Positions 2,409 through 61,895 of a stretch of 64,000 bases of DNA are shown here, piece by piece (within the stretch, counting starts at the first letter, position 1; each line of letters starts with the position of its first letter). Under the pieces are notes generated by a model. That model ran no database searches and had not been told where the DNA came from. It saw nothing but the letters and a program-made list of their open reading frames with translations. This DNA is from Bacteroidota bacterium (GTDB taxonomy: Bacteria > Bacteroidota > Ignavibacteria > Tepidaquicellales > Tepidaquicellaceae), in assembly GCA_018266895.1 (NCBI GenBank), contig JAFDZQ010000023.1, positions 1 through 64,000 of the forward strand, in the 5' to 3' direction. Position numbers and translations under genes: made by a program.

Positions 2409-2420
2409 CAGATTAGATCC

Positions 2421-3284: not shown

Positions 3285-3543
3285 ATGAGTGTTTATTAAA
3301 ATTAAAAAATCGTTTACAATTTACTCAAGTAGACAATCAATTTAAAGATAATTAAAACTCTGAAAAAGATCCTGACATTCAAAAATGAAATCATAAGCTG
3401 ATTACATTTATTTATAGTCTGAACTGATAAAAAAAATCCGGGCATATCTGTAATTGATTATTGAAGGAATTGTAACAGATATACTTAATTCTTACATTTT
3501 ATCTGTTTTATTAATAAGCTACTTTTCCCAAAAAATAAAAATC

Positions 3544-4044
3544 ATGAACAAACTAATTACTAAAACATTGTTTTTAATTCTGGCGATATCTTCGTATGCA
3601 AGCGCTACGGAAATCAGTAAAACATTCAGTAAGAAGGATATTTTAAAACTTGCTGATGCTTACATCAACAATAACGTCGGAGTAAAGAATCCTGTCATTA
3701 TAGATATCGACAAGGACGGTGATTTTGACATTCTGGACTTTACAAAGAATGGAAAAGTCGCTTATTATAAGAATACAGGTTCGCTTACAGAACCATTCTT
3801 TGTACTTGAGAATAAAAACTTTGATAATTATGAAATGAACTCATTTATTCCCAACGGAATTCCTATCCCTGTTTTTCTGGCTGACAAAGACGGTGACGGG
3901 GATTCTGATGTATTCGGTATAACAAAGGAAGATTCAAAATACAAAGCGGTTTATGCTGAAAATGCATTCGAATTAGATCACTATACACTTATAACAATCA
4001 TACTGGTTCTGCTGATCATCGTTCTGCTTATAGCAATTTTGTAA
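3544..4044 (+). CDS. Secreted or membrane-anchored protein with Ca-binding FG-GAP/VCBS-like loops
   Basis: I do not recognise a named family. The reading frame stays open upstream to a TTG at 3454, but the ATG at 3544 begins a typical signal peptide (M-N-K-L-I-T-K-T-L-F-L-I-L-A), so it is chosen; this gives 166 residues. Two loops, D-I-D-K-D-G-D-F-D and D-K-D-G-D-G-D-S-D, look like the calcium-binding turns of VCBS/FG-GAP propeller repeats. The last 21 or so residues are a hydrophobic helix with no charged tail, suggesting a C-terminal membrane anchor. One propeller cannot be built from two repeats, so it may assemble as an oligomer or be a reduced relative. Confidence 0.6.
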   Translation: MNKLITKTLFLILAISSYASATEISKTFSKKDILKLADAYINNNVGVKNPVIIDIDKDGDFDILDFTKNGKVAYYKNTGSLTEPFFVLENKNFDNYEMNSFIPNGIPIPVFLADKDGDGDSDVFGITKEDSKYKAVYAENAFELDHYTLITIILVLLIIVLLIAIL

Positions 4045-4119
4045 TTTTATAAATGTGATCCTGACTGTAATTATTATTATTATTATCAAATCGTCTAATT
4101 AACAATTGATAATTGAATC

Positions 4120-4191
4120 GCGGGAATAATTCAGTGGTAGAATGCCACCTTCCCAAGGTGGACGTCGCGGGTTCGAGTCCCGTTTCCCGCT
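4120..4191 (+). tRNA. tRNA-Gly (CCC anticodon)
   Basis: A full cloverleaf can be drawn. The acceptor stem GCGGGAA pairs with TTCCCGC and the discriminator is T. The anticodon stem CCACC/GGTGG carries the loop TTCCCAA, giving anticodon CCC (reads GGG). The T arm has GTTCGAGTCCC. CCA is not encoded. A decayed toxin-antitoxin locus starts 19 bp downstream. Confidence 0.95.
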
Positions 4192-4209
4192 CAAAAAAAA
4201 TAAAAATTT

Positions 4210-4413
4210 ATGAAATCTTACACAGCAATTGCAGAAAAATGTAAAGACACAAAACTTTATGTAGGTTTTATCCCCGGTTTTTCCGGTGCACATTCACAAG
4301 GAGAATCAATAGATGAATTAATTATTAATTTAAAAGAAGTTATTGAATTGCTTCTGGAAGATGGCGAATCAAATTTAGATGCTGAGTTTGTCGGGACACA
4401 AAAGACATTCTGA
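4210..4413 (+). CDS. HicB-type antitoxin
   Basis: This 67-residue protein matches the small single-domain HicB/UPF0150 family. The tell-tale blocks are L-Y-V-G-F-I-P-G-F-S-G-A-H-S-Q-G-E-S, followed by a helix ending L-L-L-E-D-G-E and a terminal A-E-F-V-G-T-Q. The last of these is the usual C-terminus of these short antitoxins, so the gene looks intact. HicB normally binds and blocks the HicA mRNA interferase and represses its own operon. Here the toxin gene that should follow is only a 3' fragment, so the antitoxin has probably lost its partner. Confidence 0.8.
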   Translation: MKSYTAIAEKCKDTKLYVGFIPGFSGAHSQGESIDELIINLKEVIELLLEDGESNLDAEFVGTQKTF

Positions 4414-4528
4414 TGGAAGATGTACAACAATTCCTTTCCATAAAGGAAGAGATTTATCTCCGATTATTGTAAGACAAATTACAAAGGATATAAATATCAG
4501 TCTTGATGATTTTTATGAAAAATTCTAA
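4397..4528 (+). pseudogene. Truncated hicA toxin remnant
   Basis: In the frame ending with the stop at 4526-4528, the DNA reads H-K-R-H-S-D-G-R-C-T-T-I-P-F-H-K-G-R-D-L, then S-P-I-I-V-R-Q-I and I-S-L-D-D-F. This matches the C-terminal half of HicA (double-stranded-RNA-binding-like fold). The N-terminal half, including the catalytic G-S-H histidine region, is missing and there is no plausible start codon. The fragment runs directly out of the overlapping end of hicB, as expected if an internal deletion removed the start of hicA. The 5' limit given is approximate. Confidence 0.7.
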
Positions 4529-6430: not shown

Positions 6431-7510
6431 ATGAAGAAAATATTTTTTACACCCGGACCGACTGAATTATTTCCGGAAGCAAGAAAATTTATAGAAAATG
6501 CTCTCGATGAGAATATATGTTCCATAAATCACCGCAGCAAAGAGTTTATGGATGTATACAGATCTACGACTGATTCACTCAGGCTGCTCCTGAATATTCC
6601 GGAAAACTACAGTATATTTTATTTAAGCTCTGCTACTGAATGCATGGACAGAATTGTACAGAATTGTGCTGAAAAGAACAGCTTTCATTTTGTAAACGGA
6701 GCTTTCGCGGACAGGTTTTATAAAACAGCGGTTGAACTGAACAGGAATGCCGCAAAAGCAGTAGCAGATTACGGAAAGAGTTTTGATTTTAAGAATACTG
6801 AGATTAAAAATTCACCCGAACTCATTTGCTTTACGCAAAACGAAACAAGCACGGGAGTTCAGATAAATACCGGAGAGATTTACGGCATAAAAAATAAATT
6901 TCCGCAATCACTCACCGGTGCTGACATTGTAACATCAGCGCCTTATGTTGATCTTGATTTTGCGAAAATTGACTTTGCATTCTTTTCCGTACAGAAAGGA
7001 TTCGGATTGCCGTCGGGACTGGGAGTGCTGATAGTAAATGACAACTGTATGGAAAAAGCAGCTTATCTTAAAAGCAAAAACATGGCAGGAAGCTACCATA
7101 ATTTTATTTCGCTTCATGAGAACGCTGTCAAATATCAGACAACTGAAACTCCCAATATGCTTGGAATTTATCTTTTAGGGAAAGTATGTGAAAGCATGAA
7201 CAGTTACGGTATAGAAAGGATCAGAAAAGAGACAGAAGAAAAAGCCGAAATGCTTTATGATTTTTTCGACAATCATGAATATCTTAAACCCTTCGTAAAA
7301 AATAAAGCTGACCGTTCCAAGACAATTATAAACATTAAAACCGGAGATAAGCAAAACGAAGTGAAAAAAATGCTCGCAGAAAAAGGAATAGTTGTCGGTT
7401 CGGGTTACGGTAAGTTCAAAGACACACAAATCAGGATAGCAAATTTCCCGATGCACAGAATTGATGATGTAAGGAAAATTATTGAAACATTAGGAACACT
7501 GAATATCTGA
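6431..7510 (+). CDS. serC: Phosphoserine aminotransferase
   Basis: This is a class V PLP aminotransferase (359 residues) that converts 3-phosphohydroxypyruvate and glutamate to phosphoserine. It opens with F-F-T-P-G-P-T-E and has N-H-R-S-K-E-F early on. The PLP lysine is in S-V-Q-K-G-F-G-L-P-S-G. The C-terminal small domain ends normally. The ATG follows the stop of the fused serBA gene with no gap, which indicates translational coupling. The sequence belongs to the shorter SerC-like group rather than the E. coli SerC group. Another class V aminotransferase is possible, but the operon makes serine synthesis by far the best call. Confidence 0.85.
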   Translation: MKKIFFTPGPTELFPEARKFIENALDENICSINHRSKEFMDVYRSTTDSLRLLLNIPENYSIFYLSSATECMDRIVQNCAEKNSFHFVNGAFADRFYKTAVELNRNAAKAVADYGKSFDFKNTEIKNSPELICFTQNETSTGVQINTGEIYGIKNKFPQSLTGADIVTSAPYVDLDFAKIDFAFFSVQKGFGLPSGLGVLIVNDNCMEKAAYLKSKNMAGSYHNFISLHENAVKYQTTETPNMLGIYLLGKVCESMNSYGIERIRKETEEKAEMLYDFFDNHEYLKPFVKNKADRSKTIINIKTGDKQNEVKKMLAEKGIVVGSGYGKFKDTQIRIANFPMHRIDDVRKIIETLGTLNI

Positions 7511-7604
7511 GATCACTTTTCGATTTCCATTATAACAAATCGCAGTAATTGAGCTGGTGTTACATCTAATCCTGCGTTTATAAAAGTTACAACAGAAAAA
7601 TCTT

Positions 7605-7964
7605 CTATAAAGCGAATCCGCCGATTGATTCCATATAAATACATCCCATAGTATCCAGAGCTTTTTTCAGTTTATCATCAGGACTTCCGAAAACTACGAA
7701 TTTTTTGACGCTCAGCAATGACATAAATCTAAGGGCGAAATTTTTTCCGAACGAACTGACATGAACCATAGCAGCTTCAGAGTCTGAATAGTGTTCAAAC
7801 AAAGTGCATCTCTTACCGTCACTGCTTATGAACCATTCATAATGAACTGCACCCGGTTCATTCTTTTGTGTATAATCTATCATCTCTCTCATAAGAGATT
7901 TTACCTCGTCGGTTTTTCCTTCTTTAATTTCCGTGTCAAGCACCCAGAAAATTTTCTTGTCCAT
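7605..7964 (-). CDS. ABM-domain protein (putative quinol monooxygenase family)
   Basis: A 119-residue protein with the dimeric ferredoxin-like fold of the antibiotic biosynthesis monooxygenase (ABM) family. Visible features are the opening strand with E-I-K-E-G-K, the helix with N-E-P-G-A-V-H-Y-E-W, and the strand T-L-F-E-H-Y-S-D-S-E-A-A-M-V-H, all standard ABM landmarks. Members are cofactor-free oxygenases or have unknown roles, so no substrate can be named. It follows the threonine aldolase gene on the same strand with a 48-bp gap. Confidence 0.7.
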   Translation of the reverse strand: MDKKIFWVLDTEIKEGKTDEVKSLMREMIDYTQKNEPGAVHYEWFISSDGKRCTLFEHYSDSEAAMVHVSSFGKNFALRFMSLLSVKKFVVFGSPDDKLKKALDTMGCIYMESIGGFAL

Positions 7965-8012
7965 TATTATGAAAGTTTGTTTAATTAATCTGAAATTATA
8001 ATCTGAATATAT

Positions 8013-9032
8013 TTAAATACTTTTCATTGTCTCCACAGCTTTTTCAACATCTGCGCTTGTAACATCCAGGTGAAAAACTGCTCTTAAATTATCGTAACTT
8101 CCGGAAGAAATAAGAATTCCTTTTTCTCTGAGATTATTCATTATAACTTCCTTCGGATACTTTGATGAACTGAAGATCACAATGTTCGTCTGTAATGATT
8201 TAAGATCAATTTGTATTCCGCTGATCCTGCTTATTTCAGTTCCGAAATATTTTGCCTTGTCGTTATCTTCTTTCAGTCTTTCAACATTATTATCAAGAGC
8301 ATAAATTGCAGCCGCAGCAAGAAAACCGGACTGTCTCATACCGCCTCCGAGAATCTTTCTCCATTTTCTTGCCATTTCAATGAATCCTCGATTGCCGCAT
8401 AAAACAGATCCGACCGGGCATCCGAGGCCTTTCGAAAAACAGAATGAAACAGAGTCGAAATGTTCCGAATAATCCTTTACGGATATTTTTGTTTCTGCAT
8501 AAGCGTTGAAAATTCTGGCTCCGTCAAGATGGGTCTTGATTCCGTTCTTTTTTGCAAATTCGGAAATATCCCTTATAGATTCTAATGGCAGTATTACTCC
8601 GCCGGCTCTGTTGTGAGTATTTTCCAGACAGATGAGTTTTGTGACAGGGAAGTAATATTCTTTTGATCTGATATATTTTTTTATGTCTTCAGAATAAAGA
8701 ATACCTGAATTGCCCTGAACCGGCAGCAGCTGAACATTTGAAATTACTGAAGGAGCTGCAGTTTCATAATTTAATATATGCGATTCGCTTTCTACAATAA
8801 CTTCATCACCGGGTACAGTATGACATTTGATTGCCAGCTGATTTCCCATCACGCCCGAAGTGACAAACAAAGCATCTTCCTTTCCTGTGATTTCAGCGCA
8901 TTTTCTCTGCAGTTCATTTACAGATTCATCTTCAGAGAAAACATCATCACCGACGCATGCATTCATCATTGCTTCAAGCATTGCTTTTGAAGGCTTTGTA
9001 ACTGTATCGCTGCGGATATCGATATATGACAT
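8013..9032 (-). CDS. Low-specificity L-threonine aldolase
   Basis: A fold-type I PLP enzyme (339 residues) that cleaves threonine or allo-threonine to glycine and acetaldehyde. The N-terminus I-D-I-R-S-D-T-V-T-K-P and the block G-D-D-V-F-S-E-D are hallmarks of the beta-eliminating lyase/threonine aldolase family. H-L-D-G-A-R holds the PLP-pyridine aspartate and S-F-C-F-S-K-G-L-G holds the Schiff-base lysine near residue 197. It lies 45 bp downstream of gyrA on the same strand. Confidence 0.9.
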   Translation of the reverse strand: MSYIDIRSDTVTKPSKAMLEAMMNACVGDDVFSEDESVNELQRKCAEITGKEDALFVTSGVMGNQLAIKCHTVPGDEVIVESESHILNYETAAPSVISNVQLLPVQGNSGILYSEDIKKYIRSKEYYFPVTKLICLENTHNRAGGVILPLESIRDISEFAKKNGIKTHLDGARIFNAYAETKISVKDYSEHFDSVSFCFSKGLGCPVGSVLCGNRGFIEMARKWRKILGGGMRQSGFLAAAAIYALDNNVERLKEDNDKAKYFGTEISRISGIQIDLKSLQTNIVIFSSSKYPKEVIMNNLREKGILISSGSYDNLRAVFHLDVTSADVEKAVETMKSI

Positions 9033-9077
9033 TAAATCGGATAAAATAAATTCATAAAATAGTTGGGCGACAAATTC

Positions 9078-11543
9078 TTAAAACATTTTTTCCTGTTCAT
9101 CCTTGCTTTCTTCAGCTAATCTTGCAACAGCAGATATCATATCACCTTCGTTTAATTTAATCACACGGACTCCCTGAGCGTTTCTGCCCATGACTCTTAT
9201 ATCTTTCATTTTTTGTCTGATAAGAATCCCCTTTGAAGTTATGATCATAAGATCATCCGAATCAGTTACTTCTTTTATAGAAATAAGCTTTCCGACTTTT
9301 TCCGTAGTCTTTACAGTTATCACCCCTTTTCCACCGCGGTTTGTAACTCTGTAATCTCCGAGATCGCTTCTCTTTCCGTAACCTCTGTCGGTGATGACTA
9401 ATATAGTAGCGCTGGGTCTTGTTACAGCAACTAAGCCGATTACATAATCGCCTTTACCAAGACGAATTGCACGGACACCTGTTGCTGTCCTTCCCATATC
9501 CCTGACCTGCGATTCGTTGAATCTGATCGCCTGTCCGGAATGAGAGCCGATCACAATTTCCTGTCTTCCGTTTGTCAGCTTTACATCAACAAGTGAATCA
9601 CTTTTATTAAGAGTAATTGCATTGATCCCGTTTTTTCTGATGTTGGAATAACTGTCAAGTTTTGTCTTCTTTATGACTCCCATTTTCGTGACCATCGTAA
9701 CAAAAAGTTCTTCAGTAAAATCCTTGACAAGCACAAAAGCAGAAATGTTTTCGTCTTTTTCCTTTTCTATCAGATTAAGAATTGATTTGCCTCTTGATGT
9801 TCTTGTGCCTTCAGGAATATCATAAACCTTCAGCCAGTAGCATTTTCCCTTGTCAGTGAAAAACATTATGTACTGATGAGTCGAACCGATGAACATATGT
9901 TCGTTAAAGTCGTCATCCGTGCTTCCCGTACTGGCGGCAGTAATCCCTTTGCCTCCGCGTCCCTGTGATTTGTATGAATTAACAGGTATTCTTTTTATAA
10001 AACCCTTGTTTGAAATCGTGATCACAACGTCTTCTTCCTTGACAAGTTCTTTCATCATTTCGTCATCGGACATTTTCCTTACATCATAAACTATTTCAGT
10101 CCTTCTTTCATCACCGAATTTTTCCTTTAACATTTTCAGATCGTCACAGATAATTTCTCTTCTGAGCTGATCGCTGTCAAGAATTCTTTTTAATCTTTCT
10201 ATGGTTTTGATGACTTCCTTGTACTCATCTTCTATTTTTTTTCTTTCAAGTCCCGTAAGTCTCTGAAGACGCATTTCAAGAATAGCAGTCGCCTGTATTT
10301 CCGAAAGCTTGAACTTTTTCATCAGTCCTTCTCTTGCGGAAGGTGTATCTTTGGATTTTTTTATAAGTTTGATTATCTCATCAATATTATCCAAAGCTAT
10401 TATATAGCCTTCAAGTATATGCGCTCTTTTTTCTGCAGTTTCCAGATCGAACTTTGTTCTCCTGATTATCACATTCAGCCTGTGAGCGATGAAATGCTGC
10501 ATCATTTCCTTAAGGTTCAGGACTCTTGGAATGCCGTCAACAAGTGCAAGCATAATTACACCGAATGTAACGGACATCTGTGTATGTTTGTAAAGATTAT
10601 TTACTATCACATGAGGATTTGCATCTCTCTTTAGACCTATGACGATTCTCATCCCGTCTCTGTCACTTTCATCATTGATGTCTGATATCTCCTCGACTTT
10701 CTTATCCCTGACGAGCTGTGCGATATTTTCAATCAAAGATACTTTGTTGACCTGATACGGAATTTCGTTAATGATAATATTTTGTTTGCCGTTTTTCTCC
10801 GTTTCGATCGAAACTTTTGCTCTTAGAATGATCTTGCCTCTCCCGGTTTCATAAGCATCTTTCACAGGCTGATATCCGTATATGATCCCGCCCGTCGGAA
10901 AATCCGGGGCAGTGACATATTTCATAAGTTTCTTGATGTCGGCGTCCGTATTTTTTACAAGATACGAAACACCGTCGCAGATCTCATTCAGGTTATGAGG
11001 CGGAATGTTGGTAGCCATGCCGACCGCTATTCCGTTTGAACCGTTCACGAGCAGATTAGGAACGATTGACGGAAGTACTGATGGCTCTTTTAAGGTATCA
11101 TCAAAGTTCGGTAAAAAGTCAACTGTATTTTTTTCAAGGTCTTCAAGAATTGCTTCAGCAACTTTTGATAATCTTGCTTCTGTATATCTCATTGCCGCTG
11201 CCGAATCACCGTCAATTGATCCGAAATTTCCCTGTCCGTCTACAAGCGGGTACCGCAGGGAAAATTCCTGAACCATTCTTACCATCGTATCATATACTGC
11301 TTTGTCACCGTGCGGATGGTATTTTCCCAGAACTTCTCCTACTATCCTAGCTGATTTTTTATGGGTTTTGTTGGACGCTAGTCCCAGTTCATTCATCCCG
11401 AATAACACACGTCTGTGAACAGGCTTAAGTCCGTCCCTCACATCCGGTAATGCTCTTGCCACAATTACAGACATTGAATAATCAATGTATGAAGACTTCA
11501 TTTCATCTTCTATATTTACCGGTATTATTTTTTCGTTAGCCAT
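9078..11543 (-). CDS. gyrA: DNA gyrase subunit A
   Basis: GyrA is the breakage-reunion subunit of gyrase; it pairs with GyrB to introduce negative supercoils. The 821-residue length is normal. The active tyrosine is in A-M-R-Y-T-E-A-R-L (near residue 119). The C-terminal pinwheel domain contains Q-G-R-G-G-K-G, the GyrA box, which argues for gyrase rather than topoisomerase IV. In the quinolone-resistance region the motif is [10 protein letters not shown]: the position equivalent to E. coli Ser83 is lysine while Asp87 is kept. It is preceded by a DinB-like gene with a 27-bp gap. Confidence 0.95.
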
Positions 11544-51011: not shown

Positions 51012-51040
51012 TTGACAAGTTACAACATTAGTAGTATATT
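51012..51040 (+). promoter_or_regulatory. Strong sigma70-like promoter for the BNR-repeat gene
   Basis: TTGACA (51012-51017), a 17-bp spacer and TATATT (51035-51040) form a near-consensus promoter. Transcription would start near 51047, giving a leader of about 75 nt before the ATG at 51123. The TTG of the -35 box would otherwise be misread as a start codon. Confidence 0.72.
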
Positions 51041-51122
51041 TATCAAAAATATTTCGGAAATAAATAAGTTTAAGAACTATAAACATAAAATTAATTTAAA
51101 ACCAAACATAAAGGAGAAAAAA

Positions 51123-52781
51123 ATGTTCAAAAAATTTTCAGCATTGTTATTATTGGTTCTGCTATCAGTGAGTGTTTCCAAAGCTCAGGATCCGGGACCT
51201 CCTGCAACACTCGGACCTGGAGAATCATACACCGGCTTATGGTCAGTATCTTATGACTATCAGACAAACGGAAGCGTAAGATATTTAGTACAGGATCCTA
51301 CAAATAAATCCAAATGGTGCGCAATCTTAATGTCACAGCCTGATTCATCAACAGCAGCAGGAGCAGGAAGACATATTTACTATTCTTACAGCGATGACAA
51401 CGGAGCTACATGGTCATCTGACGTTCTTGACGGTGTAAACAATCAGGGATTTCCTTGTCTTACATTATCTAACGGACTTCCGGTAATTGCAAGACACCAG
51501 TCAGCAACAGTTGGTACACTTGTATCAAAAGACGCTTCATTCGGAGCTTTTGGTTTTTCTAATGTTCCAGGAGTACCTGTGAATCTTACAGGAAATCTTC
51601 CTATCTGGCCGCATATCTCAGGAACAGCAAACGGTAACCTTGTATTAGTTGCAGCTCCTAATAATACCGGCGCATTTAACGGATGGAGAACTACTTACAA
51701 CGGTTCAGGCTGGTCACCTTATGTTGATTTAACCACAATCAGCGGTCCTTCAGGAAACTTTGATGTTGCAGCAAACGGAAACGGAAAAGTCTGTATTATT
51801 GGTACTGATTATAATTCCAATTCAAACGCAATGAGTCTTTTTTCTTCAAATGATAACGGATTAACTTTTGACAACGGCACTGTAATTTTTAATTATGTTA
51901 TTGACGGAACAGACACTTTATTCGCAAATATTGCCGGCGGATACCAGGCGACTTATATAGGTGATGAACCTCACGTCGTATTTGCAGCTTACAACGCCAC
52001 AGCAACCGTATTTCCGAATGCGAATACAAATGAATATGTAAAACCAAGAATTTATCATTGGTCACAATCAACAGGACTGAAGTTAGTTGCAAGTAAATCA
52101 AACATTCCACAGTTAACTGATACGATCACACAGATTCTGATGGTGCCTCTTACACAGCCAACAGTTACACGTTTAGGAAATGGAAATTTAGTCTGTGCTT
52201 TTACGGCATTTTTAAGAAATAACGTACAGACAGTTGATAACGGAGATCAGGTTAACGCAGGGGAAATATTTACATCAGTTTCTACTAACGGCGGTTCAAC
52301 ATGGTCAACACCTGTTAATCAGACAAATACTCCATCGGTAGAAGAGAAACATCCTTCATTTGCGCAGACTACTTCAGACAGTTTAAGACTGTATTACATC
52401 AGAGACATGAAAGCAGGCGGATGGGTAAATGTACCTGACTGGGGTAAGGCTCCGGTTTATGGTATTTTCAAGAAAGCAGCTATCACAGTTGGAATTAAAG
52501 AGAATGTTTCAATTGCTAAAAGCTATGAATTGTTCCAGAACTATCCAAATCCTTTCAATCCTACGACAACAATCAGCTATTTTGTACAAAAAACAGGAAT
52601 AGTAACATTAAAAGTGTATGATGCATTAGGAAGGGAAGTTGCTTCACTTGTTAATGAAGTTCAGTCACAAGGTCCAAAAGAAGTTACATTCATCGGAGAT
52701 AAACTGTCAAGCGGAATTTATTATTATTCAATTTCCGCAGGAGATTTCAAAGATACAAAGAAAATGATGTTGATTAAGTAA
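51123..52781 (+). CDS. Secreted BNR/sialidase-like protein with T9SS sorting domain
   Basis: A 552-residue exported protein. A signal peptide opens it (F-K-K-F-S-A-L-L-L-L-V-L-L, cut near S-K-A-Q). Asp-box repeats S-D-D-N-G-A-T-W, S-N-D-N-G-L-T-F and S-T-N-G-G-S-T-W indicate a sialidase-type beta propeller. The C-terminus has the T9SS type A sorting motif Y-P-N-P-F-N-P, then G-I-Y-Y-Y-S and a basic end. The ATG at 51123 follows an AAGGAG site and begins the signal peptide. A sialidase role is not proven; the Arg triad cannot be assigned. Confidence 0.78.
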   Translation: MFKKFSALLLLVLLSVSVSKAQDPGPPATLGPGESYTGLWSVSYDYQTNGSVRYLVQDPTNKSKWCAILMSQPDSSTAAGAGRHIYYSYSDDNGATWSSDVLDGVNNQGFPCLTLSNGLPVIARHQSATVGTLVSKDASFGAFGFSNVPGVPVNLTGNLPIWPHISGTANGNLVLVAAPNNTGAFNGWRTTYNGSGWSPYVDLTTISGPSGNFDVAANGNGKVCIIGTDYNSNSNAMSLFSSNDNGLTFDNGTVIFNYVIDGTDTLFANIAGGYQATYIGDEPHVVFAAYNATATVFPNANTNEYVKPRIYHWSQSTGLKLVASKSNIPQLTDTITQILMVPLTQPTVTRLGNGNLVCAFTAFLRNNVQTVDNGDQVNAGEIFTSVSTNGGSTWSTPVNQTNTPSVEEKHPSFAQTTSDSLRLYYIRDMKAGGWVNVPDWGKAPVYGIFKKAAITVGIKENVSIAKSYELFQNYPNPFNPTTTISYFVQKTGIVTLKVYDALGREVASLVNEVQSQGPKEVTFIGDKLSSGIYYYSISAGDFKDTKKMMLIK

Positions 52782-52879: not shown

Positions 52880-55759
52880 ATGAAAAAGTTTATACAAAAT
52901 TTTAGCTGCATTGCTATTTTAGCATTGGTAGCGATATCAATTACAAACTCGGGTATTTATTCCCAGACGACCGGAAGTATTACCGGAACAGTAATTGATT
53001 CAAAAGATAAGCTTCCCTTAGTAGGAGCCGTTGTTCAGGTCGTAGGCTCAAGCAGAGGTTCTGTTACAGACGATAACGGGGAATATTTAATTATCAATGT
53101 AGATGTCGGTACTTATGAATTAGAGGCATCATACATAGGATATACAGCACAGAAACAATCAGGTGTCAGAGTTTCTGTTGACACGAAAACAAAAGTAAAT
53201 TTTGAATTAAGTGCAACAGGAAATGAAATCAAGACTGATGTGATAGTCATTCAGGCAGAAAGAAAAGGAATTGATGTTGAACAGAGCGGAAGACTTGTAG
53301 GGCAGGAACAAATTGAAAACTCAGGAATCAGGGGAATTCAGAATCTTGCTGCAGTTACAGCAGGGGTTGTTACGGATGAAAGAGGATCAAATATCAATAT
53401 CAGAGGCGGAAGAAAGTCTACGAACTCGATCATTGTAGACGGAGTTTCCACAACAAATCCTGTTGACGGTACATCTACAGCATTTGTACCTAATAGTTTA
53501 TTACAAGAGCTTGCAGTATTGACAGGCGGATTCGGTGCAGAATATGGTAACGCATTGGATGGAGTCATCAATGTTACTACAAAGAGCGGATCTGACAGAT
53601 ATTCGGGATCTATAGAAGGAATAACAGATGCAATTTCAGGTAACTGGATTGATACAAAATCGCAGCAATATAATTTATACAATATCTCAGTCGGCGGTCC
53701 TTTAATTCCGTCAAAAAATCTGAGCAGTGTTATAAATTTCTACGGTGGAGTTGAAAGACAGTTTTTAGGTGTTACAAATCCAAGCTGGATTGCCGATAAG
53801 ATTTTTGAAGACGGCATTATTAAAAATTACAATACGCAATTATGGTCATACAGCGGAAGATTAAATTTTGATTTATCACAGATAAAAAAATCAAAGATAC
53901 CTATTCAATTAAAATTAGGTTATTTAAGAACAGATAAACACGCAAGAAATTTTGTGCAATCGTGGGCTTTGACAAACACAGACAGAGCTCCATTAAATAT
54001 TGTAGAAGATCAGCAGTATTATGCAAGGATAATTCATACAGTATCGTCAAAATTCTTCTATGAATTACAGGGAAATTATTACAAAAACAGTAATATCACG
54101 CAGGATGCATATTTCAAAGATGAATGGTTTAAATATGGTGATACATTATGGAATCCCGGTATAACCGGACAAGGGACAAGACTTGAAGCTGATCCGAATT
54201 ATGCAAATGTATTTGTTAAGAACGGAAGAATATTCAATAGTTACGATAAAAAGGAACTCGAATATTCCGGAGGAAAATTAGATGCATCATATTCGCTTTT
54301 ATCAAAAAAATACGGTGATCATGACATAAAGTTCGGAGGAGAATACAGATACCATACATTAAGAAAAGTAAATTTCGCTCCAATGTCAGTTGCAGCAAAT
54401 TCGATAGTAGGACTTGACACTGCAACCGGCACACCGATTTACCAGGTAAATCCTCAGGACTTATGGTTTGGAAGGAATGTACTTCTGAATTCCTATGGTT
54501 ATGATGTTCGCGATCAGTTCGGAAATCAGATCGTTTCCAATGAAGATATAGAGGCTAAGCATCCTATTGTAGCTGCTCTTTATTTAAGGGATAAAGTTGA
54601 TTTCAGTGATCTGACTGTAAATGCAGGTATCAGAATGGATTACCTTGATGTTAATACTGATGTTTTAAAAGATCCGAAAGTTTTATTATCGAGTACAGGC
54701 GAACTATTGAGCGATGAAGCTTACCAGAAAAGCAAAGGTGAGTTGTATTTCAGCCCGAGATTAGGTTTTTCATTTCCTGTTACAGATAAAACAATATTCG
54801 TAGCACAGTTTGGAAAATTTATTCAGATGCCTCCGTTAGATTTTCTATACATAAACAAGCTTGCATTCAAATACTTCTTTGCAAACTCAGTACAGAACGT
54901 AGCGGAAAATTCAGCTCTTACGCCAGAGAAATTAACTTCTTATGAATTTGGATTTAAACAGGCAGTAGGTGATTATCTGAATATGGGACTTACGGCTTAT
55001 TATAAAGAAACAAAAGACCAGATCGGTGTTACAAGAATTGCCGGTTCAGCCACTGTTCCGTCAGGATACGCATTATATGCCAACACAGACTTCAGTATTT
55101 CAAGAGGTCTGGATTTTTATTTAAGTATGAGAAGAGTTAACAGATTAGCAGTTGATATATCATACACTTTGTTATTTGCTTCGGGAATCGGATCTGATCC
55201 GAACACAAAATTCCAGCTTGCAAACAATCCTGATGCTGAATTACCTAAATTCGCTTTTCCTCAGGACTATGATCAAAGACACACAGGTAACATAAATCTT
55301 GATTACAGATTCGGATCTACAGATGTACCGAAAGGATTCTGGGGTGGAGTGTTGTCTAATCTTGGAATGAATGCATTGTTCAGTTTTAACAGCGGAAGAC
55401 CTTATACAGCAAGGGAATTACCTGTAGGTGCTTTTGTAGATGACGGTCTTGTAAAGTCAACCAAAAATCAGGTTTATACAAACTGGAATTTAAGATTAGA
55501 TGCAAAAATCGACAAGACTATAAAGATAGCAAAGACGAATTTAAACTTTTATGTATACGTCCTGAATTTGTTTAATTCCGAATTAATCAATAAAGTATAC
55601 GGCAGCACTGGACGCCCGGATGATAACGGATATCTTAACACTCCGACAGGCTCAGCTGCATCGCAATTATACAAAGATAATTTCAAAATAAGAATTGCGG
55701 ATATAACAAACTGGGGAACTCCGCGTCAGGTAAGATTTGGTATCAAACTGAGTTTCTAA
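52880..55759 (+). CDS. TonB-dependent outer membrane receptor
   Basis: A 959-residue outer membrane receptor. After a signal peptide there is a carboxypeptidase-regulatory-like domain (G-S-I-T-G-T-V-I-D through D-D-N-G-E-Y, residues about 33-115). The plug (about 130-240) has I-R-G-G-R and the segment V-D-G-V-S, and the beta barrel ends in Phe, as usual. This is the SusC/carboxypeptidase-regulatory type typical of Bacteroidota, but no SusD-like partner is present. The next gene encodes a large secreted protein, which may be its partner or cargo. Confidence 0.85.
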   Translation: MKKFIQNFSCIAILALVAISITNSGIYSQTTGSITGTVIDSKDKLPLVGAVVQVVGSSRGSVTDDNGEYLIINVDVGTYELEASYIGYTAQKQSGVRVSVDTKTKVNFELSATGNEIKTDVIVIQAERKGIDVEQSGRLVGQEQIENSGIRGIQNLAAVTAGVVTDERGSNINIRGGRKSTNSIIVDGVSTTNPVDGTSTAFVPNSLLQELAVLTGGFGAEYGNALDGVINVTTKSGSDRYSGSIEGITDAISGNWIDTKSQQYNLYNISVGGPLIPSKNLSSVINFYGGVERQFLGVTNPSWIADKIFEDGIIKNYNTQLWSYSGRLNFDLSQIKKSKIPIQLKLGYLRTDKHARNFVQSWALTNTDRAPLNIVEDQQYYARIIHTVSSKFFYELQGNYYKNSNITQDAYFKDEWFKYGDTLWNPGITGQGTRLEADPNYANVFVKNGRIFNSYDKKELEYSGGKLDASYSLLSKKYGDHDIKFGGEYRYHTLRKVNFAPMSVAANSIVGLDTATGTPIYQVNPQDLWFGRNVLLNSYGYDVRDQFGNQIVSNEDIEAKHPIVAALYLRDKVDFSDLTVNAGIRMDYLDVNTDVLKDPKVLLSSTGELLSDEAYQKSKGELYFSPRLGFSFPVTDKTIFVAQFGKFIQMPPLDFLYINKLAFKYFFANSVQNVAENSALTPEKLTSYEFGFKQAVGDYLNMGLTAYYKETKDQIGVTRIAGSATVPSGYALYANTDFSISRGLDFYLSMRRVNRLAVDISYTLLFASGIGSDPNTKFQLANNPDAELPKFAFPQDYDQRHTGNINLDYRFGSTDVPKGFWGGVLSNLGMNALFSFNSGRPYTARELPVGAFVDDGLVKSTKNQVYTNWNLRLDAKIDKTIKIAKTNLNFYVYVLNLFNSELINKVYGSTGRPDDNGYLNTPTGSAASQLYKDNFKIRIADITNWGTPRQVRFGIKLSF

Positions 55760-55786
55760 AATTTATAAATTCAAAACTTAACGAAT

Positions 55787-58700
55787 ATGAATAAACTTAT
55801 ATATATATTTTTAATAATAATTACTGCTCAGTTTGGTTATTCCAAACCAAGGAATGACAATCCTTATAATGCAAAAAACAGCGGCGCATTGATTTTGGAC
55901 AATAATAATCCAAACAGTACGAGTGCTTTTGTAAAACTGCAGGCAAGGTTTGATCCTAACAGAGTAGATACATGGTTTCAGAATACAGGTACATTCAATC
56001 AGGATATAAGAACAAACAATACTCCCGGATTTATGTGGCCAGCCGGTTCATCGCGGTTTGCTATATTTACTTCCGGACTTTCCATCGGATGTTATTATAA
56101 CGGAGCAATAAGACAGGCAGCAGCATCTTATGCAGGTGAGTATGCTCCGGGATATATTGATGAAAATGGTGTCGTAAAAACAGATTCCAGATTCAGAATA
56201 TACAAAATTAAAGCCGGTGATAATGCAACTAACAGTGCGGATTATGCCGCGTGGGGTGATATGGTTCCTTTCGGAGCGCCTTATGTAGATGTCAATAATG
56301 ACGGTATTTACACTCCCGGGATAGATATTCCGGGAATTAAAGATGCCGAGCAAACTTTGTTTTTATGTATGACTGACGGATTTCCTGAAAGACATGCTGT
56401 CGGAGAAGGATTTGGAGGGGGAACTCCTCCAATAAATGCAGAAATTCATCTGACTTTATGGGGTTACAACACACAGGGACTTGAAGACCTTCAGTTTGTC
56501 AACTGGGTCGTAATCAACAAGTCAAATACAACATGGGAAAGGACTTTCTTCAGCGTTGTAGTAGATCCTGATTTAGGAGATGCAACTGATGATTATATTG
56601 GCTGTGATACATCAGCAATTTCGGGAAATAAAAATATGGCATTTTGTTATAATGCGGATAATATTGACGGAAGCGGTACTCCGCCATCTTACGGACAATC
56701 ACCACCGGCTTCCGGAATGGATTTTTTCCAGAGTCCGATAATCAGAACAAGTAATCCGAATGATTCGGTCTCATATTATTTCCCTCCGGGTTCATCAAAC
56801 AGAGTTACGAAACAAGGAAAAGAAATTGGTTTATCTTCATTTGTATATTTTACAAATACTGGTTCGGGCGGAGCTCAGTGTGAGCAGGATCCCGGTTCAC
56901 CTTTAGAAGCATACAGATATCAGACAGGTATTAAAAAAGACGGTACCCCATGGTTATATCCGGGCACGCTGCAGCCGACAAAATTCTGCTATCCCGGAGA
57001 TCCGGAAAGATTTACCGGCTGGTCTGAAAGAGGAACAAACGGTGTCTCAAATTTAGCAGTAGTTAAAAACTGCGGCGGAGCGATAACAGGAACTCCTGAA
57101 GTAAGCCCTCCCGGAGACAGAAGATTTATTTTTAATTCCGGAGATTCAACATTCAATGTTGCTCCCGGAGATACACAGGTAATAGTTTTAGGACAATTTG
57201 TAGCAAAGGGTACAAGCAACTTAAATTCAGTTACACAGTTAAAAAGAGTTGATGCTACTGCACAGTCACTTTACAATTCCAACTTTGCAGTAAATCCTCC
57301 TCCTCCGTCACCGGATGTAACAGTAAGTATAGGTGCACAAAACAGCGAACTTGGACACGCGAATATTTCATTTGCATGGGGAGACAGATCAGAATCATAT
57401 TTAATATGGGACTCATTACTTCAGCCAAGAAGCGATACAAGCTTTCTGAAGTTTGAAGGATATGAGATTTATGAAATCAGAAGATCTGCGGTTAATATTC
57501 CTGATTTCAATGATCCTGCAAGCATTAACAATAATATAAAGTTACTTCAGATATACGACAGAATTGATACGGTTGGTATTATTATTGACACTTTACCTAC
57601 CGGAATAAGCGTGAATGGCGTACCTCAGTACGGAAATTTCCCGGTAGTTCCTTATTATACAGCTCCTATACCTAATGGATTTCCAAACACCGGAATTTTC
57701 AGGAATTATCTGGTTACTCAGACTGCATTCCCTGAAGAAAACGGTGGAAGTACGAATCTAATTTACGGAAACACATATAAATTTGCAATTGTATCTTATG
57801 CTTACAGAACAAATCCAAAGCAAAAGACAGACAGAAAAGTTGTAAGAAGTCCGTTCATTTCCGCAATAAGAACCATAATTCCTCAGTCACCTGTTGCCGG
57901 AAGTGAATTCTCCATCAAAAACGGAGATACATTAAACACAAACAGAAGAGATTTGGGAGTAATGCCAATAGTAAAAAATCAGGATCTTCTGAAGACTGCT
58001 CTTTACAGAATTAATTTTAATGCTCCTGATACTACTTACAGTATTTTAAGATCTGAAAACAGCGGAGTTTCATATGATACACTGAGTAAGGCGAATAAAT
58101 ACATTAAATCATCACTGGGAACGACATTCCCCGATGATTCGTCAAAAATTATAGACGGAGTATTAATCAAGGTTCAGAAAATTCTTAATACCGGTGTTAT
58201 CAGAGATTTAGATACTCCAAGAGACAGTACTCAGGCAAAACTTCAGGGATGGCAATATGAACCTGCATCAAATGTATATTTAAAAGGTGTGGATACACTC
58301 GGAGGATACGCAACTCAGAGACCATATCAGAACAAGAGTATGAGTCTTTCATATCCTAATGCCAACACTTTCAGCGGTACCGGAACAACTATAACTCCGG
58401 AAAGACTGAAAAAAGTTGTAATTGAGTTTTCAGACGAAAACAGCGGACAAATGGCTTACAGATATGTAAATAATACAATTTTCCCGCCGGTTGATCCGTC
58501 ATTTGCTCCTTATATTATTTCTACCGGACCGGCTTTCAGATATCAGGATATGAGAAGAGTGCCGTTTAAGGTTTATGAAGTTATCGATGCAGGTGACAGT
58601 CTTGCAACACCCGTAAAAAGACAGGTTAACTGTGCATTCCTTGAAAATAATGATTCATTATTTGCAACTGTGAACGGAGTAAGTGTCGAAGTAGGAAGAG

Positions 58701-59341
58701 GTAAAGTAAATGGTAAGTGGGATCCGACAACATACAGAACAGGCGGACTCGAAATATTGTATATTTTTGCTTCAGATTACAGCGAAACAGAGAATACATT
58801 TTATACCTCAAAGAACCTGAGAACTAACCAAAATCAATTTGATATAACTTATGTCTGGAATCCAAAGAGAATTAACAATTCAATGGACTTTAAGTCAGGT
58901 GATAAATTTACAATTTATCCGTACACAGTCACCAGACCTGTACAGTACACAGGCGTTCCCTTATTTTATGAATTTAAAACCACTGCACCTATAGTAGGAA
59001 ACAATGAACTTGCAAAATCAAAAGGTGATCTGGATAAAATCAGGGCAGTTCCTAATCCTTTCTATGGTTTCAGCGATATTCAGAGAAATGCTTCTGACAG
59101 AAATATTACTTTCAGAAGATTACCAAAAGTATGTAACATAAAAATATACACGTTAAGCGGAGATTTCATCAGAAAGCTCGAGAAAAACAATGATGAATCT
59201 ACATTAACCTGGGATATAAAAAATCTCGAAGCCGTACCTATTGCTTCCGGTATGTACATTGCTTTAATAGAAGCACCGGGTATTGGGGAAAAAATAATTA
59301 AACTTGCAATATTTACATCTGAAGAAAGGATAGGTTTCTAA
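55787..59341 (+). CDS. Very large secreted protein with T9SS-like C-terminus
   Basis: A 1184-residue exported protein of no family I can name. A signal peptide occupies residues about 1-19. The body is beta-rich with blocks such as V-V-D-P-D-L-G-D-A-T-D-D-Y-I-G-C-D and D-V-N-N-D-G-I-Y-T-P-G-I-D. The end resembles a T9SS sorting domain (A-V-P-N-P-F-Y-G and a G-M-Y-I-A-L strand), though the last residues are G-F rather than basic. It lies between the TonB receptor and the PorV-like gene, which supports an outer-surface role. Confidence 0.7.
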   Translation: MNKLIYIFLIIITAQFGYSKPRNDNPYNAKNSGALILDNNNPNSTSAFVKLQARFDPNRVDTWFQNTGTFNQDIRTNNTPGFMWPAGSSRFAIFTSGLSIGCYYNGAIRQAAASYAGEYAPGYIDENGVVKTDSRFRIYKIKAGDNATNSADYAAWGDMVPFGAPYVDVNNDGIYTPGIDIPGIKDAEQTLFLCMTDGFPERHAVGEGFGGGTPPINAEIHLTLWGYNTQGLEDLQFVNWVVINKSNTTWERTFFSVVVDPDLGDATDDYIGCDTSAISGNKNMAFCYNADNIDGSGTPPSYGQSPPASGMDFFQSPIIRTSNPNDSVSYYFPPGSSNRVTKQGKEIGLSSFVYFTNTGSGGAQCEQDPGSPLEAYRYQTGIKKDGTPWLYPGTLQPTKFCYPGDPERFTGWSERGTNGVSNLAVVKNCGGAITGTPEVSPPGDRRFIFNSGDSTFNVAPGDTQVIVLGQFVAKGTSNLNSVTQLKRVDATAQSLYNSNFAVNPPPPSPDVTVSIGAQNSELGHANISFAWGDRSESYLIWDSLLQPRSDTSFLKFEGYEIYEIRRSAVNIPDFNDPASINNNIKLLQIYDRIDTVGIIIDTLPTGISVNGVPQYGNFPVVPYYTAPIPNGFPNTGIFRNYLVTQTAFPEENGGSTNLIYGNTYKFAIVSYAYRTNPKQKTDRKVVRSPFISAIRTIIPQSPVAGSEFSIKNGDTLNTNRRDLGVMPIVKNQDLLKTALYRINFNAPDTTYSILRSENSGVSYDTLSKANKYIKSSLGTTFPDDSSKIIDGVLIKVQKILNTGVIRDLDTPRDSTQAKLQGWQYEPASNVYLKGVDTLGGYATQRPYQNKSMSLSYPNANTFSGTGTTITPERLKKVVIEFSDENSGQMAYRYVNNTIFPPVDPSFAPYIISTGPAFRYQDMRRVPFKVYEVIDAGDSLATPVKRQVNCAFLENNDSLFATVNGVSVEVGRGKVNGKWDPTTYRTGGLEILYIFASDYSETENTFYTSKNLRTNQNQFDITYVWNPKRINNSMDFKSGDKFTIYPYTVTRPVQYTGVPLFYEFKTTAPIVGNNELAKSKGDLDKIRAVPNPFYGFSDIQRNASDRNITFRRLPKVCNIKIYTLSGDFIRKLEKNNDESTLTWDIKNLEAVPIASGMYIALIEAPGIGEKIIKLAIFTSEERIGF

Positions 59342-59348
59342 TATTTCT

Positions 59349-59378
59349 GAGATCCGGGTTTTTTACAGCCCGGATCTC
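59349..59378 (+). promoter_or_regulatory. GC-rich hairpin upstream of the PorV-like gene
   Basis: GAGATCCGGG (59349-59358) pairs perfectly with CCCGGATCTC (59369-59378) around a 10-nt loop. There is no T-run after it, so it is not a simple terminator; it may protect an mRNA end or mark a processing site. Confidence 0.5.
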
Positions 59379-59403
59379 TAACTTAAAATAAGGAGAATTT
59401 AAA

Positions 59404-60429
59404 ATGCTTAAAAAATATATACTAATATTAATTGTAACATTATTTGTTTCATCATTGTCATATTCAGGACCGAGGAATAAACTTGGTCTGAATGCAGCTG
59501 ATGAACTTCTGATTCCTGTAGGCTCTATTGGAACATCTTTACAGGGATCCAATCTTGCAAGCACTACCGGTATTGAATCAATGTACTGGAATCCTGCAGG
59601 ACTCGCAAAGATTAATTCAAAAACCGGCGAGGCAATGTTTTCTTATATGAATTATGTTGCTGATATGAGCGTTCAGTATGCAGGCGGCGCAGTAAAAATC
59701 GGTAATATGGGCGTCTTGGGATTTTCGATCAAGAATCTGAATTTCGGAGATCCTGAACTTGTAACAACTGTTTTTGCTCCTGAAGGTACCGGCGAAACAT
59801 TCAGTCCGACTTATATAATCGGAAATTTAAGTTTTGCCCGTGCTATGACTGATAAAATTAATTTTGGCACAAATATAAAATACATCAGCGAGAATATCGC
59901 CAATGTAAGTTCAAACAGTTTTGCTTTCGACTTCGGACTGCAGTATATTGCCGGTCAAAGCGGAATAAGATTCGGTATAGCTTTAAAGAACCTTGGACCA
60001 AGAATGAAATTTGACGGACCGGGACTTGACAGGACATTTGTGGAAAACGGAGTTAATGTCGTAAGAAGAGTTACTCTTCAGGAATTTGAATTACCTACAA
60101 ATCTTGAAATCGGCTTGTCATATAAAGCCAATTTAAATAAAAATAATTTCCTGAATCTGTCAACAACATTCCAGAATTCGTCTTATGCCAGTGATGAATA
60201 TAAATTCGGTCTTGAATACAATTATAACAATTACCTGTTTTTAAGAGGTGCTTTAAAAGTTCTGCCTGATAAGGAAAAAGATGAATCATTATTCGGTCCT
60301 TCATTCGGAATCGGGTTGAGATACCCGGTTGGCGGAGTTAATATAGGATTTGACTATGCATACAGAGTTGTAGATCAGTCATCTTTTAATTCTACAAACC
60401 AGTTTTTTACTTTCAATCTGGGTTTTTAG
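59404..60429 (+). CDS. PorV/PorQ-like outer membrane protein
   Basis: A 341-residue beta-barrel protein. The signal peptide is at residues about 1-20. The family block S-L-Q-G-S-N-L-A-S-T-T-G-I-E-S-M-Y-W-N-P-A-G-L-A is very clear. PorV relatives help T9SS cargo reach and attach to the cell surface; PorQ has a related role. The C-terminus is N-L-G-F, a barrel-type end. An AAGGAG site precedes the start. It follows a large secreted-protein gene and is followed by a terminator. Confidence 0.82.
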   Translation: MLKKYILILIVTLFVSSLSYSGPRNKLGLNAADELLIPVGSIGTSLQGSNLASTTGIESMYWNPAGLAKINSKTGEAMFSYMNYVADMSVQYAGGAVKIGNMGVLGFSIKNLNFGDPELVTTVFAPEGTGETFSPTYIIGNLSFARAMTDKINFGTNIKYISENIANVSSNSFAFDFGLQYIAGQSGIRFGIALKNLGPRMKFDGPGLDRTFVENGVNVVRRVTLQEFELPTNLEIGLSYKANLNKNNFLNLSTTFQNSSYASDEYKFGLEYNYNNYLFLRGALKVLPDKEKDESLFGPSFGIGLRYPVGGVNIGFDYAYRVVDQSSFNSTNQFFTFNLGF

Positions 60430-60452
60430 GTAGAAAATTTTTATCTTAAATT

Positions 60453-60488
60453 AAAAAAGGTAATTCTTATAAAAGAATTGCCTTTTTT
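60453..60488 (+). terminator. Intrinsic terminator after the PorV-like gene
   Basis: A 16-bp stem (60453-60468 with 60473-60488, one G-U pair) closes a 4-nt loop and ends in a T-run followed by more T. It would end the receptor-PorV transcript before the GWxTD gene. Confidence 0.85.
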
Positions 60489-60512
60489 TATTTTTTTAAA
60501 TTTCAATAATCT

Positions 60513-61895
60513 ATGATCATGAAAATAATAAGATGGTTTTTAATAATAGCAGCTTTTATAACATTCAGATCTGAAAAAGTATTTTGTGAAGATTCATTCC
60601 AGTTTAATTCTGATTATGCAGTATATAAAGGAAGTGATAATAAGGCTTTATTGGAAATTTATTATTCGTTTTACATGAAGTCGCTTAAATATAGTTTTGA
60701 AAAAGGCGAATATAATGCAGTTGTAATCATAGGAATAAAAATTTCCGATAAAAGCGGAAATAATGTTAAGTTTGATCAGCAATACAACAGCAGTTCAACA
60801 GTGAAAGATACTTCCGGGCAGGAATTAAAGAAAAATTTAATCGGTCAGCTTAATGTCTCAATACAGGACGGGGAATATTTACTCGAGATAACGGGGACTG
60901 ATTCAAAAAACATTAATCATTCGGATACGCTTAAATATATTTTAAATATACAGGAAAACATAAGTGAAACAACCATGAGCGATGTGGAAATTGCTTCGGA
61001 CATAAGAAAATCCGGTGACCAGCAGAACAGTTTTTATAAAAATACTCTTTTAGTAATTCCAAATCCTCCCGCTCTATTCGGAAACAATCTGAAAATAATT
61101 TATTTTTATTTTGAATTATACAACCTCAGCCCTGACAGCAGTTACACAGTTCAGAAAAGAATTTATGACATCAACAGGAATTTAATAATTAATTCGGATA
61201 AAAATATCAAACCCGGCAGCAGATCTCTCGCAGAATACGGAACTATCGGAATAGATACTCTGCATTCAGGCATTTACTTTCTGGAAGTATTACTTGAGAA
61301 TCAAAACGGTAAAGTATTTTCTTCAAAAGAAAAAAAAATATTTGTATATAACCTGAATGACAATAAGACAAACATCTCCGGCAATGCATCATCCCAGAAT
61401 TATCTTACCAGCGGATATTCTCAGATGAAAGAAGAAGATCTTGACAGGGAGTTTGATCTTTCTGTCTACATAAGATCTGATTTCGAAACAAAAAGTTTTA
61501 AGAATCTGAGTAAGCTTGAAGATAAAAGGAAATTTATGTTTGAATTCTGGAAAGCAAGGGATAATAATCCCGCAACACCCGTAAATGAATACAAAATGAA
61601 TTATTTTAAAAAAATAAACGAAGCAAATAAGAGTTTTAAAGAATCATACAGAGAAGGATGGAAAACAGACAGAGGCAGGATCTATGTCACTTACGGCAAG
61701 CCGGATGACATTGAAAGATTTCCTTACCAGATAAGTTCAAAGAGTTATGAAATCTGGAATTATAACTCATTAGAAGGAGGCGCTAAATGCGTTTTTATCG
61801 AAAAGGAACAGTCTACGGGAATTTATGATCTGGTTCACAGTACATTAAGAGACGAACTGAGAAACAATGACTGGGAAAAAGAATTAAAAAACTGA
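60513..61895 (+). CDS. GWxTD domain-containing exported protein
   Basis: A 460-residue protein with an N-terminal signal segment (about residues 3-24). Residues about 375-420 contain the naming motif as G-W-K-T-D-R-G-R-I-Y-V-T-Y-G-K-P-D-D. The function of the GWxTD domain is unknown; it is common in Bacteroidota-Chlorobi relatives and often encoded close to envelope proteins. ATG codons at 60513 and 60519 are both possible starts. YbbR and CPBP-like genes follow with little space. Confidence 0.8.
   Translation: MIMKIIRWFLIIAAFITFRSEKVFCEDSFQFNSDYAVYKGSDNKALLEIYYSFYMKSLKYSFEKGEYNAVVIIGIKISDKSGNNVKFDQQYNSSSTVKDTSGQELKKNLIGQLNVSIQDGEYLLEITGTDSKNINHSDTLKYILNIQENISETTMSDVEIASDIRKSGDQQNSFYKNTLLVIPNPPALFGNNLKIIYFYFELYNLSPDSSYTVQKRIYDINRNLIINSDKNIKPGSRSLAEYGTIGIDTLHSGIYFLEVLLENQNGKVFSSKEKKIFVYNLNDNKTNISGNASSQNYLTSGYSQMKEEDLDREFDLSVYIRSDFETKSFKNLSKLEDKRKFMFEFWKARDNNPATPVNEYKMNYFKKINEANKSFKESYREGWKTDRGRIYVTYGKPDDIERFPYQISSKSYEIWNYNSLEGGAKCVFIEKEQSTGIYDLVHSTLRDELRNNDWEKELKN

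What the first reader, a model, noticed from the sequence alone, without database searches (positions are those of the whole stretch)
52880..61895. Surface locus: TonB receptor, 1184-residue secreted protein, PorV-like barrel and GWxTD protein
Four exported proteins are encoded in a row: a carboxypeptidase-regulatory-type TonB receptor without SusD, a giant T9SS-like secreted protein of no known family, a PorV/PorQ-like protein, and a GWxTD protein of unknown function. Gaps within the first three genes are short; a terminator separates the GWxTD gene. I infer that they build one outer-surface complex for capture, attachment or motility, with the receptor importing or sensing what the large protein binds. 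This is the best candidate for an undescribed system in the window.
Basis: partly seen in the sequence, partly recalled or inferred. Interest (0 to 1): 0.65.

Follow-up and report, generated by a model that had tools for sequence, protein, structure and literature searches.

The report
TonB receptor–T9SS protein–PorV-like barrel cassette
Three neighbouring genes encode an outer-membrane import receptor, a large protein probably exported to the cell surface, and a barrel that probably holds that protein there; the same trio, nearly always in the same order, recurs across several bacterial phyla, so it looks like an undescribed surface uptake machine built from type IX secretion parts.

Summary
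The four genes are present as described. The unit is three genes, not four: a TonB-dependent receptor (TBDR), a 1184-aa exported protein (LARGE) and a PorV-family barrel. This order recurs in 70 intact non-redundant copies across the FCB superphylum, with congruent gene trees and, in 51 of 69 copies, a terminator-like hairpin just after the barrel gene. In the window genome the trio was exchanged as a block: flanking genes follow the species relatives, while all three trio trees reject that placement. LARGE carries a T9SS-type C-terminal domain (CTD) of an unnamed subtype with a conserved 8-10-residue, aromatic-ended tail; it is nearest the uncleaved CTD of PorZ and that of the genome's own PorU. 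Copies of the same ectodomain with an ordinary cleavable CTD are never next to a PorV gene (0 of 25, against 84 of 101). The modelled N-terminal domain most resembles beta-supersandwich domains of carbohydrate-active enzymes. No SusD match was found in the window genome; SprA was found in all 17 genomes tested. Best reading: LARGE is exported by T9SS, kept on the surface by its own PorV-like anchor, and feeds the TBDR. Anchoring and import are inferred. GWxTD is a frequent neighbour, not a core part.

The parts
52880..55759 (+). TonB-dependent receptor, 959 aa: CarboxypepD_reg (aa 33-118), TonB-box-like stretch DVIVIQAER just before the plug, Plug (aa 132-229), barrel ending in F
   Evidence: conserved upstream partner of LARGE
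55787..59341 (+). LARGE, 1184-aa exported protein with an N-terminal Sec-type signal; AF2 model mean pLDDT 82
   Evidence: homologues across the FCB superphylum
55922..57286 (+). LARGE N-terminal domain (aa 46-500), nearest to beta-supersandwich domains of GH116/GH94-type enzymes and YidC P1; boundaries approximate
   Evidence: reused in secreted paralogues
56564..56608 (+). Near-invariant acidic loop of LARGE (aa 260-274), possible metal/Ca site (inference)
   Evidence: D260, D262, G264, D268, D269 and D274 in at least 95% of triads
59027..59314 (+). T9SS-type CTD of LARGE (aa 1081-1176), PorU/PorZ-like subtype; K1172 (nt 59300-59302) invariant
59315..59338 (+). C-terminal tail TSEERIGF (aa 1177-1184; 8 residues here, 9 in most relatives) after the last CTD strand, low confidence in the model, ending in an aromatic; found mainly in copies paired with a PorV gene
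59404..60429 (+). PorV-family outer-membrane barrel, member of a cassette-specific clade distinct from the genome's own PorV and PorQ
60453..60488 (+). Terminator-like hairpin that ends the three-gene unit
   Evidence: 51 of 69 cassettes against about 1 in shuffles
60513..61895 (+). GWxTD-domain protein: frequent neighbour outside the core unit; modelled as beta-sandwich domains plus the C-terminal GWxTD domain

Best explanation
The core is a three-gene outer-membrane cassette. LARGE is made with a Sec signal and a T9SS-type CTD and crosses the outer membrane through SprA (inferred; SprA was found in every genome tested). Its CTD subtype is read by the dedicated PorV-family barrel encoded next door. 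That barrel pulls LARGE out of the translocon and keeps holding the CTD, so LARGE stays on the surface uncleaved, as PorU and PorZ do with PorV and PorQ (inferred). The conserved aromatic-ended tail is probably a docking element (inferred). The LARGE ectodomain, with a carbohydrate-enzyme-like supersandwich domain, captures a ligand, probably a glycan or glycoconjugate, and presents it to the co-encoded TBDR for TonB-driven import. It would thus play the part that lipidated SusD plays for SusC (inferred). Confidence by step: three-gene unit is real 0.95; LARGE exported by T9SS 0.85; PorV-like barrel is its dedicated shuttle/anchor 0.75; physical work with the TBDR 0.55; ligand import 0.45; glycan ligand 0.35.
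For: TBDR-LARGE-PorV order in 70 intact non-redundant triads from Ignavibacteria, Kryptonia, Latescibacterota, Neomarinimicrobiota, KSB1 and Zixibacteria, with partial copies in Handelsmanbacteria and Eisenbacteria; median gaps about 24 nt. Tree distances correlate at r 0.80-0.91 and 42 of 67 splits are shared by all three trees. Terminator-like hairpin after PorV in 51 of 69. Block exchange in the window genome: flanks group with G001/G010, but TBDR, LARGE and PorV reject that placement (p-AU 8e-66, 1e-65, 0.012). CTD subtype tracks the PorV neighbour: 84 of 101 against 0 of 25 for ordinary type A CTDs on the same ectodomain, with both kinds in the same genomes. Tail of 8-10 residues in 83 of 86 and final F/Y in 71 of 86. 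LARGE's best structural match is PorZ (5m11, E 1.5e-7), and an own-genome CTD match is PorU, which lies beside PorV. K1172 is invariant, corresponding by position to the type A CTD lysine that contacts PorV (PMC10994853). Cassette PorVs cluster apart (81 cassette plus 2 others, support 0.81). The genome has its own PorV and PorQ. SprA in 17 of 17 genomes. No SusD_RagB match in the own genome and in 13 of 17.
Against: No physical contact between any two of the proteins was shown; no complex could be modelled. The supersandwich match is to supporting domains of enzymes, with low TM-scores normalised by the query (about 0.16). PorZ global superposition is poor (rmsd 29 A), so that match may largely reflect the CTD and generally beta-rich domains. 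Some LARGE homologues with the cassette CTD have no PorV next door (17 of 101), and the carbohydrate assignment is untested. TBDRs can also signal, or merely be co-regulated. Shared inheritance explains part of the tree congruence.
Confidence: 0.55

Rival explanations
1. Anchored surface structure: LARGE is an adhesin or coat protein held by the PorV-like barrel, and the TBDR is only co-regulated or does an unrelated import job.
For: Type B CTD proteins with cognate PorP/SprF shuttles are mostly adhesins (PMC12618676, PMC9143113). Paralogues of the LARGE ectodomain also occur as probably released proteins in tandem arrays.
Against: The TBDR is directly upstream in nearly all cassettes, exchanges with the other two and has a tree congruent with theirs. 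Copies without the cassette CTD lack both TBDR and PorV neighbours.
Confidence: 0.2
2. Envelope-assembly role: the trio is a variant attachment complex like PorU-PorV-PorQ-PorZ, handling surface glycolipid for exported proteins, with the TBDR moving the glycan donor.
For: CTD nearest to PorU and PorZ. PorZ binds the A-LPS glycan (PMC8545088). In the window's order the locus sits among housekeeping genes, near lptB.
Against: The genome already has PorU, PorV and PorQ. Cassettes are multicopy in some relatives. No sortase-type domain in LARGE.
Confidence: 0.15
3. The PorV-like barrel is a FadL-type channel for a hydrophobic ligand, and LARGE simply guards or delivers to it.
For: The PorV family belongs to the FadL/TodX barrel superfamily.
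Against: Closest solved relative is T9SS PorV (5e-20, against 2e-5 for TodX). The CTD-PorV covariation has no reason under this view.
Confidence: 0.07
4. The four genes including GWxTD form one complex.
For: GWxTD follows PorV in 19 of 59 cassettes, including one from KSB1.
Against: Terminator between; not seen next to PorV in most other phyla; lost or moved in G002; the placement rejected by the trio is not rejected for GWxTD (p 0.43).
Confidence: 0.1

Closest known systems
PorZ-PorQ and PorU-PorV of the T9SS attachment complex (Porphyromonas gingivalis)
   Same: Surface protein with an uncleaved CTD held by a PorV/PorQ-family barrel; [quoted passage not shown] PorZ is the top structural match of LARGE
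   Different: Ectodomain is supersandwich plus further beta domains, not propellers or a gingipain-like protease; the barrel is neither the PorV nor the PorQ equivalog; linked to a TBDR; extra aromatic-ended tail on the CTD
Type B CTD cargo with cognate PorP/SprF shuttle (SprB-SprF, PG1035-PorP)
   Same: Cargo gene directly followed by its dedicated shuttle/anchor barrel gene
   Different: The CTD is Ig-like type A/PorU-like with no TIGR04131 match; the barrel is PorV-family, not PorP/SprF
SusC-SusD nutrient importers
   Same: TBDR with a CarboxypepD_reg domain co-encoded with a large extracellular, possibly glycan-binding partner
   Different: Partner is a T9SS-type exported protein with CTD, not a SusD lipoprotein; a third OM barrel is present; the TBDR does not match the SusC/RagA model
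PorU2-PorV2 (NCBIfam NF052324, NF052325)
   Same: Paralogous CTD-protein plus PorV-family idea
   Different: LARGE has no PorU2 domain; the barrel scores 67 bits against a PorV2 cut-off of 325

Membership tests
T9SS type A CTD (TIGR04183) | Score above the curated cut-off (23 bits) | tested here: not met
   17 bits
T9SS type A CTD (TIGR04183) | Ig-like sandwich with the conserved lysine in the last strand | tested here: met
   AF2 strands 1086-1175 and K1172 invariant in 68 sequences; PorZ CTD match
T9SS type A CTD (TIGR04183) | Cleaved by PorU | not testable with these tools
   needs mass spectrometry; the PorU/PorZ-like subtype suggests not cleaved
T9SS type B CTD (TIGR04131) | HMM match | tested here: not met
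   no match
PorV (NF033710) equivalog | Score above cut-off 250 | tested here: not met
   63 bits; canonical PorV is at C62 with 296 bits
PorQ (NF033711) equivalog | Score above cut-off 220 | tested here: not met
   71.5 bits; canonical PorQ is at C98 with 261 bits
PorV/PorQ family (NF033709) | Score above cut-off 90 | tested here: met
   162 bits; PDB 6h3i PorV 5e-20
SusCD system | SusC/RagA-type TBDR (TIGR04056) | tested here: not met
   window TBDR has no TIGR04056 match at E 0.1
SusCD system | SusD/RagB lipoprotein next to the receptor | tested here: not met
   no SusD_RagB (PF07980) match in the genome; LARGE begins with a non-lipoprotein signal
SusCD system | Extracellular partner closes over the TBDR and TonB drives import | not testable with these tools
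   no complex modelling or assay
PorU sortase / PorZ | Gingipain-like protease or twin-propeller ectodomain | tested here: not met
   Pfam/NCBIfam give only the CTD; model domains differ
T9SS-dependent export | Translocon SprA in the same genome | tested here: met
   17 of 17 genomes above cut-off, 0 of 14 controls

The most novel reading that the evidence does not exclude
An FCB-superphylum-wide class of TonB-dependent uptake machine in which the SusD role is taken by a T9SS-exported supersandwich protein, tethered by an uncleaved CTD of a new subtype to its own PorV-family barrel, used in lineages that mostly lack SusD.
Probability: 0.4. Interest if true: 0.82.

Novelty: new variant of a known kind. 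Interest (0 to 1): 0.64.

Why it matters
Many uncultured FCB lineages (Ignavibacteria, Marinimicrobia, Latescibacterota, Zixibacteria) have TonB receptors but mostly no SusD match here. This cassette would give them a defined surface-capture system and link T9SS, known for enzymes and adhesins, directly to nutrient import. It also offers a natural comparison, the same ectodomain with a retained-type or a cleavable CTD, which bears on the open question of what decides PorU processing against retention (stated as open in PMC11285876).

Tried and rejected
GWxTD fold search: only generic Ig-domain matches, no functional lead. Literature searches for GWxTD and for PorV-like paralogues in this role: nothing relevant. 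Type B CTD identity: rejected by HMM. The first CTD regex misfiled 21 standard CTDs, so a two-HMM classification replaced it. Residue-level co-evolution between partners was not attempted: 70 triads are too few. Only PF07980 was searched for SusD; other SusD Pfam models were not. Same-genome duplicate cassettes were too few to separate co-evolution from species descent.
Full report
WHAT IS THERE. The receptor has CarboxypepD_reg and Plug domains and a TonB-box-like stretch. LARGE has no family beyond a sub-threshold T9SS tail. The barrel passes NCBIfam's PorV/PorQ family but is neither the PorV nor the PorQ equivalog, and the genome has both of those elsewhere. A terminator-like hairpin lies between barrel and GWxTD.

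CONSERVATION. In the window's order the locus lies in largely fixed synteny: rplQ, engB, a D-hydroxyacid dehydrogenase, one or more BNR-type T9SS proteins, TBDR, LARGE, PorV, GWxTD, YbbR, CPBP, then pdxJ and lptB. A search of named genomes found relatives across the FCB superphylum: Ignavibacteria, Kryptonia, Latescibacterota, Neomarinimicrobiota, KSB1, Zixibacteria, Eisenbacteria and Handelsmanbacteria. In most of these loci the order TBDR-LARGE-PorV is kept. I count 70 intact non-redundant triads, with median gaps near 24 nt. In 51 of 69 a terminator-like hairpin follows PorV within 130 nt, against about 1 expected from shuffles. In an even sample of 297 genomes of the window's phylum, strong matches to the cassette barrel (E at or below 1e-100) were read off in about 57, mostly in the window's class; some genomes have several copies.

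ONE UNIT OF THREE. Tree distances for the three proteins correlate at 0.80-0.91, and 42 of 67 splits are shared by all three trees. Common descent alone would give part of that. Stronger is a natural experiment at the window locus. The same-genus genome G001 is 96% identical in EngB, 78% in the BNR protein, 75% in YbbR and 77% in CPBP, but only 45%, 31% and 48% in TBDR, LARGE and PorV. The window's trio is closer to G019 and G007 (63-64%, 49-50%, 64-68%). Holding the window with its flank relatives is rejected for TBDR (p-AU 8e-66), LARGE (1e-65) and PorV (0.012), while YbbR and EngB already show that grouping; for CPBP and GWxTD it is not rejected (p 0.35 and 0.43). The trio was exchanged, or sorted, as a block between fixed flanks. 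The direction is not resolved.

THE CTD. LARGE's C-terminal domain matches, in its own genome, the CTD of PorU, whose gene is next to PorV. The profile's best solved-structure hit is the PorZ CTD (weak, E 0.18), and the model's top Foldseek hit is PorZ (1.5e-7). PorU and PorZ keep their CTDs, whereas cargo CTDs are cut off (PMC11285876). K1172 is invariant and corresponds to the lysine that contacts PorV in solved translocon complexes (PMC10994853); that correspondence is by position in the last strand, not by a structural superposition. Cassette CTDs carry 8-10 extra residues after that strand (83 of 86), usually ending in F or Y (71 of 86), with consensus K-L-A-V-I/F-x-E/P-E/Q-E/Q-R/I-L-D-x-F/Y. 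In the window the tail is the 8 residues TSEERIGF. It has low confidence in the monomer model. PorU and PorZ have only three and one extra residues (PMC11285876).

CTD TYPE TRACKS THE BARREL. The LARGE ectodomain also occurs in paralogues that end in a standard cleavable-type CTD, some full length (36-49% identity). A two-HMM classification gives: cassette CTD with PorV next 84, without 17; standard CTD with PorV next 0, without 25. The Fisher p of 1.6e-15 is overstated because sequences are related, and the cassette model was trained on PorV-paired copies. But five relatives (G007, G012, G016, G020, G027) hold both kinds, and many of the 17 unpaired cassette-type CTDs lack or alter the tail. 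Type B CTD cargo next to cognate PorP/SprF shuttles is the known parallel (PMC12618676, PMC9143113).

STRUCTURE. AF2 of LARGE with 68 sequences gives pLDDT 82. The N-terminal region (about 46-500) is the likely source of matches to beta-supersandwich domains of GH116, GH94 and GH65 enzymes and YidC P1; the output gives aligned length (about 490-520 columns), not residue ranges, so the assignment to that region is an inference. Foldseek probabilities are high but TM-scores low, so the carbohydrate link is a lead only. An acidic loop at 260-274 is near-invariant across phyla.

CONTEXT. SprA is above cut-off in all 17 genomes tested, including the other phyla, and in none of 14 controls. The window genome has 17 TonB plug matches and no SusD_RagB match; 13 of 17 cassette genomes have none.

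MECHANISM. Shown by sequence: the unit, its order, its block exchange, the CTD subtype and its tie to the barrel. Inferred from known T9SS biology: export by SprA, retrieval and anchoring by the cognate barrel. Inferred from gene linkage only: cooperation with the TBDR and import.

GWxTD. It has a Sec-type signal and no lipobox seen by eye, is modelled as beta-sandwich domains plus the GWxTD domain, and is a frequent but dispensable neighbour. Its role stays open.

Noticed in passing
L076 (G000:C46), 1220-11081: A second, diverged locus in the same genome: a 706-aa LARGE-like protein with a cassette-like CTD but no tail, a nuclease-like protein with an assembly gap, a 452-aa unknown, a TBDR and a PorV-family barrel.
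   Followed up: partly
L066 4143-15268; L065 4196-13772; L073 3631-12190: Tandem arrays of proteins (about 550 and 850 aa) that reuse the LARGE N-terminal domain with standard cleavable-type CTDs; expanded in several genera, not detected in the window genome.
   Followed up: partly
L079 8678-12285 (G000:C69): A 541-aa protein with a PorU-like CTD followed by two PorV-family barrels in tandem, another possible cargo-anchor pair.
   Followed up: no
L069 6440-10744 (G000:C51): A 1434-aa subtilisin-like protease with a PorU/cassette-like CTD and no PorV neighbour.
   Followed up: no
window 51012-52781: BNR-type T9SS protein upstream of the cassette: 78% identical to G001 and 69% to G010 but at most about 36% in the other relatives; more than one copy at this position in some relatives.
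   Followed up: partly
L062 / L106 (G002) and L118 (same assembly as L106): GWxTD, YbbR and CPBP are missing next to the trio and lie together on another contig beside a second LARGE gene.
   Followed up: partly
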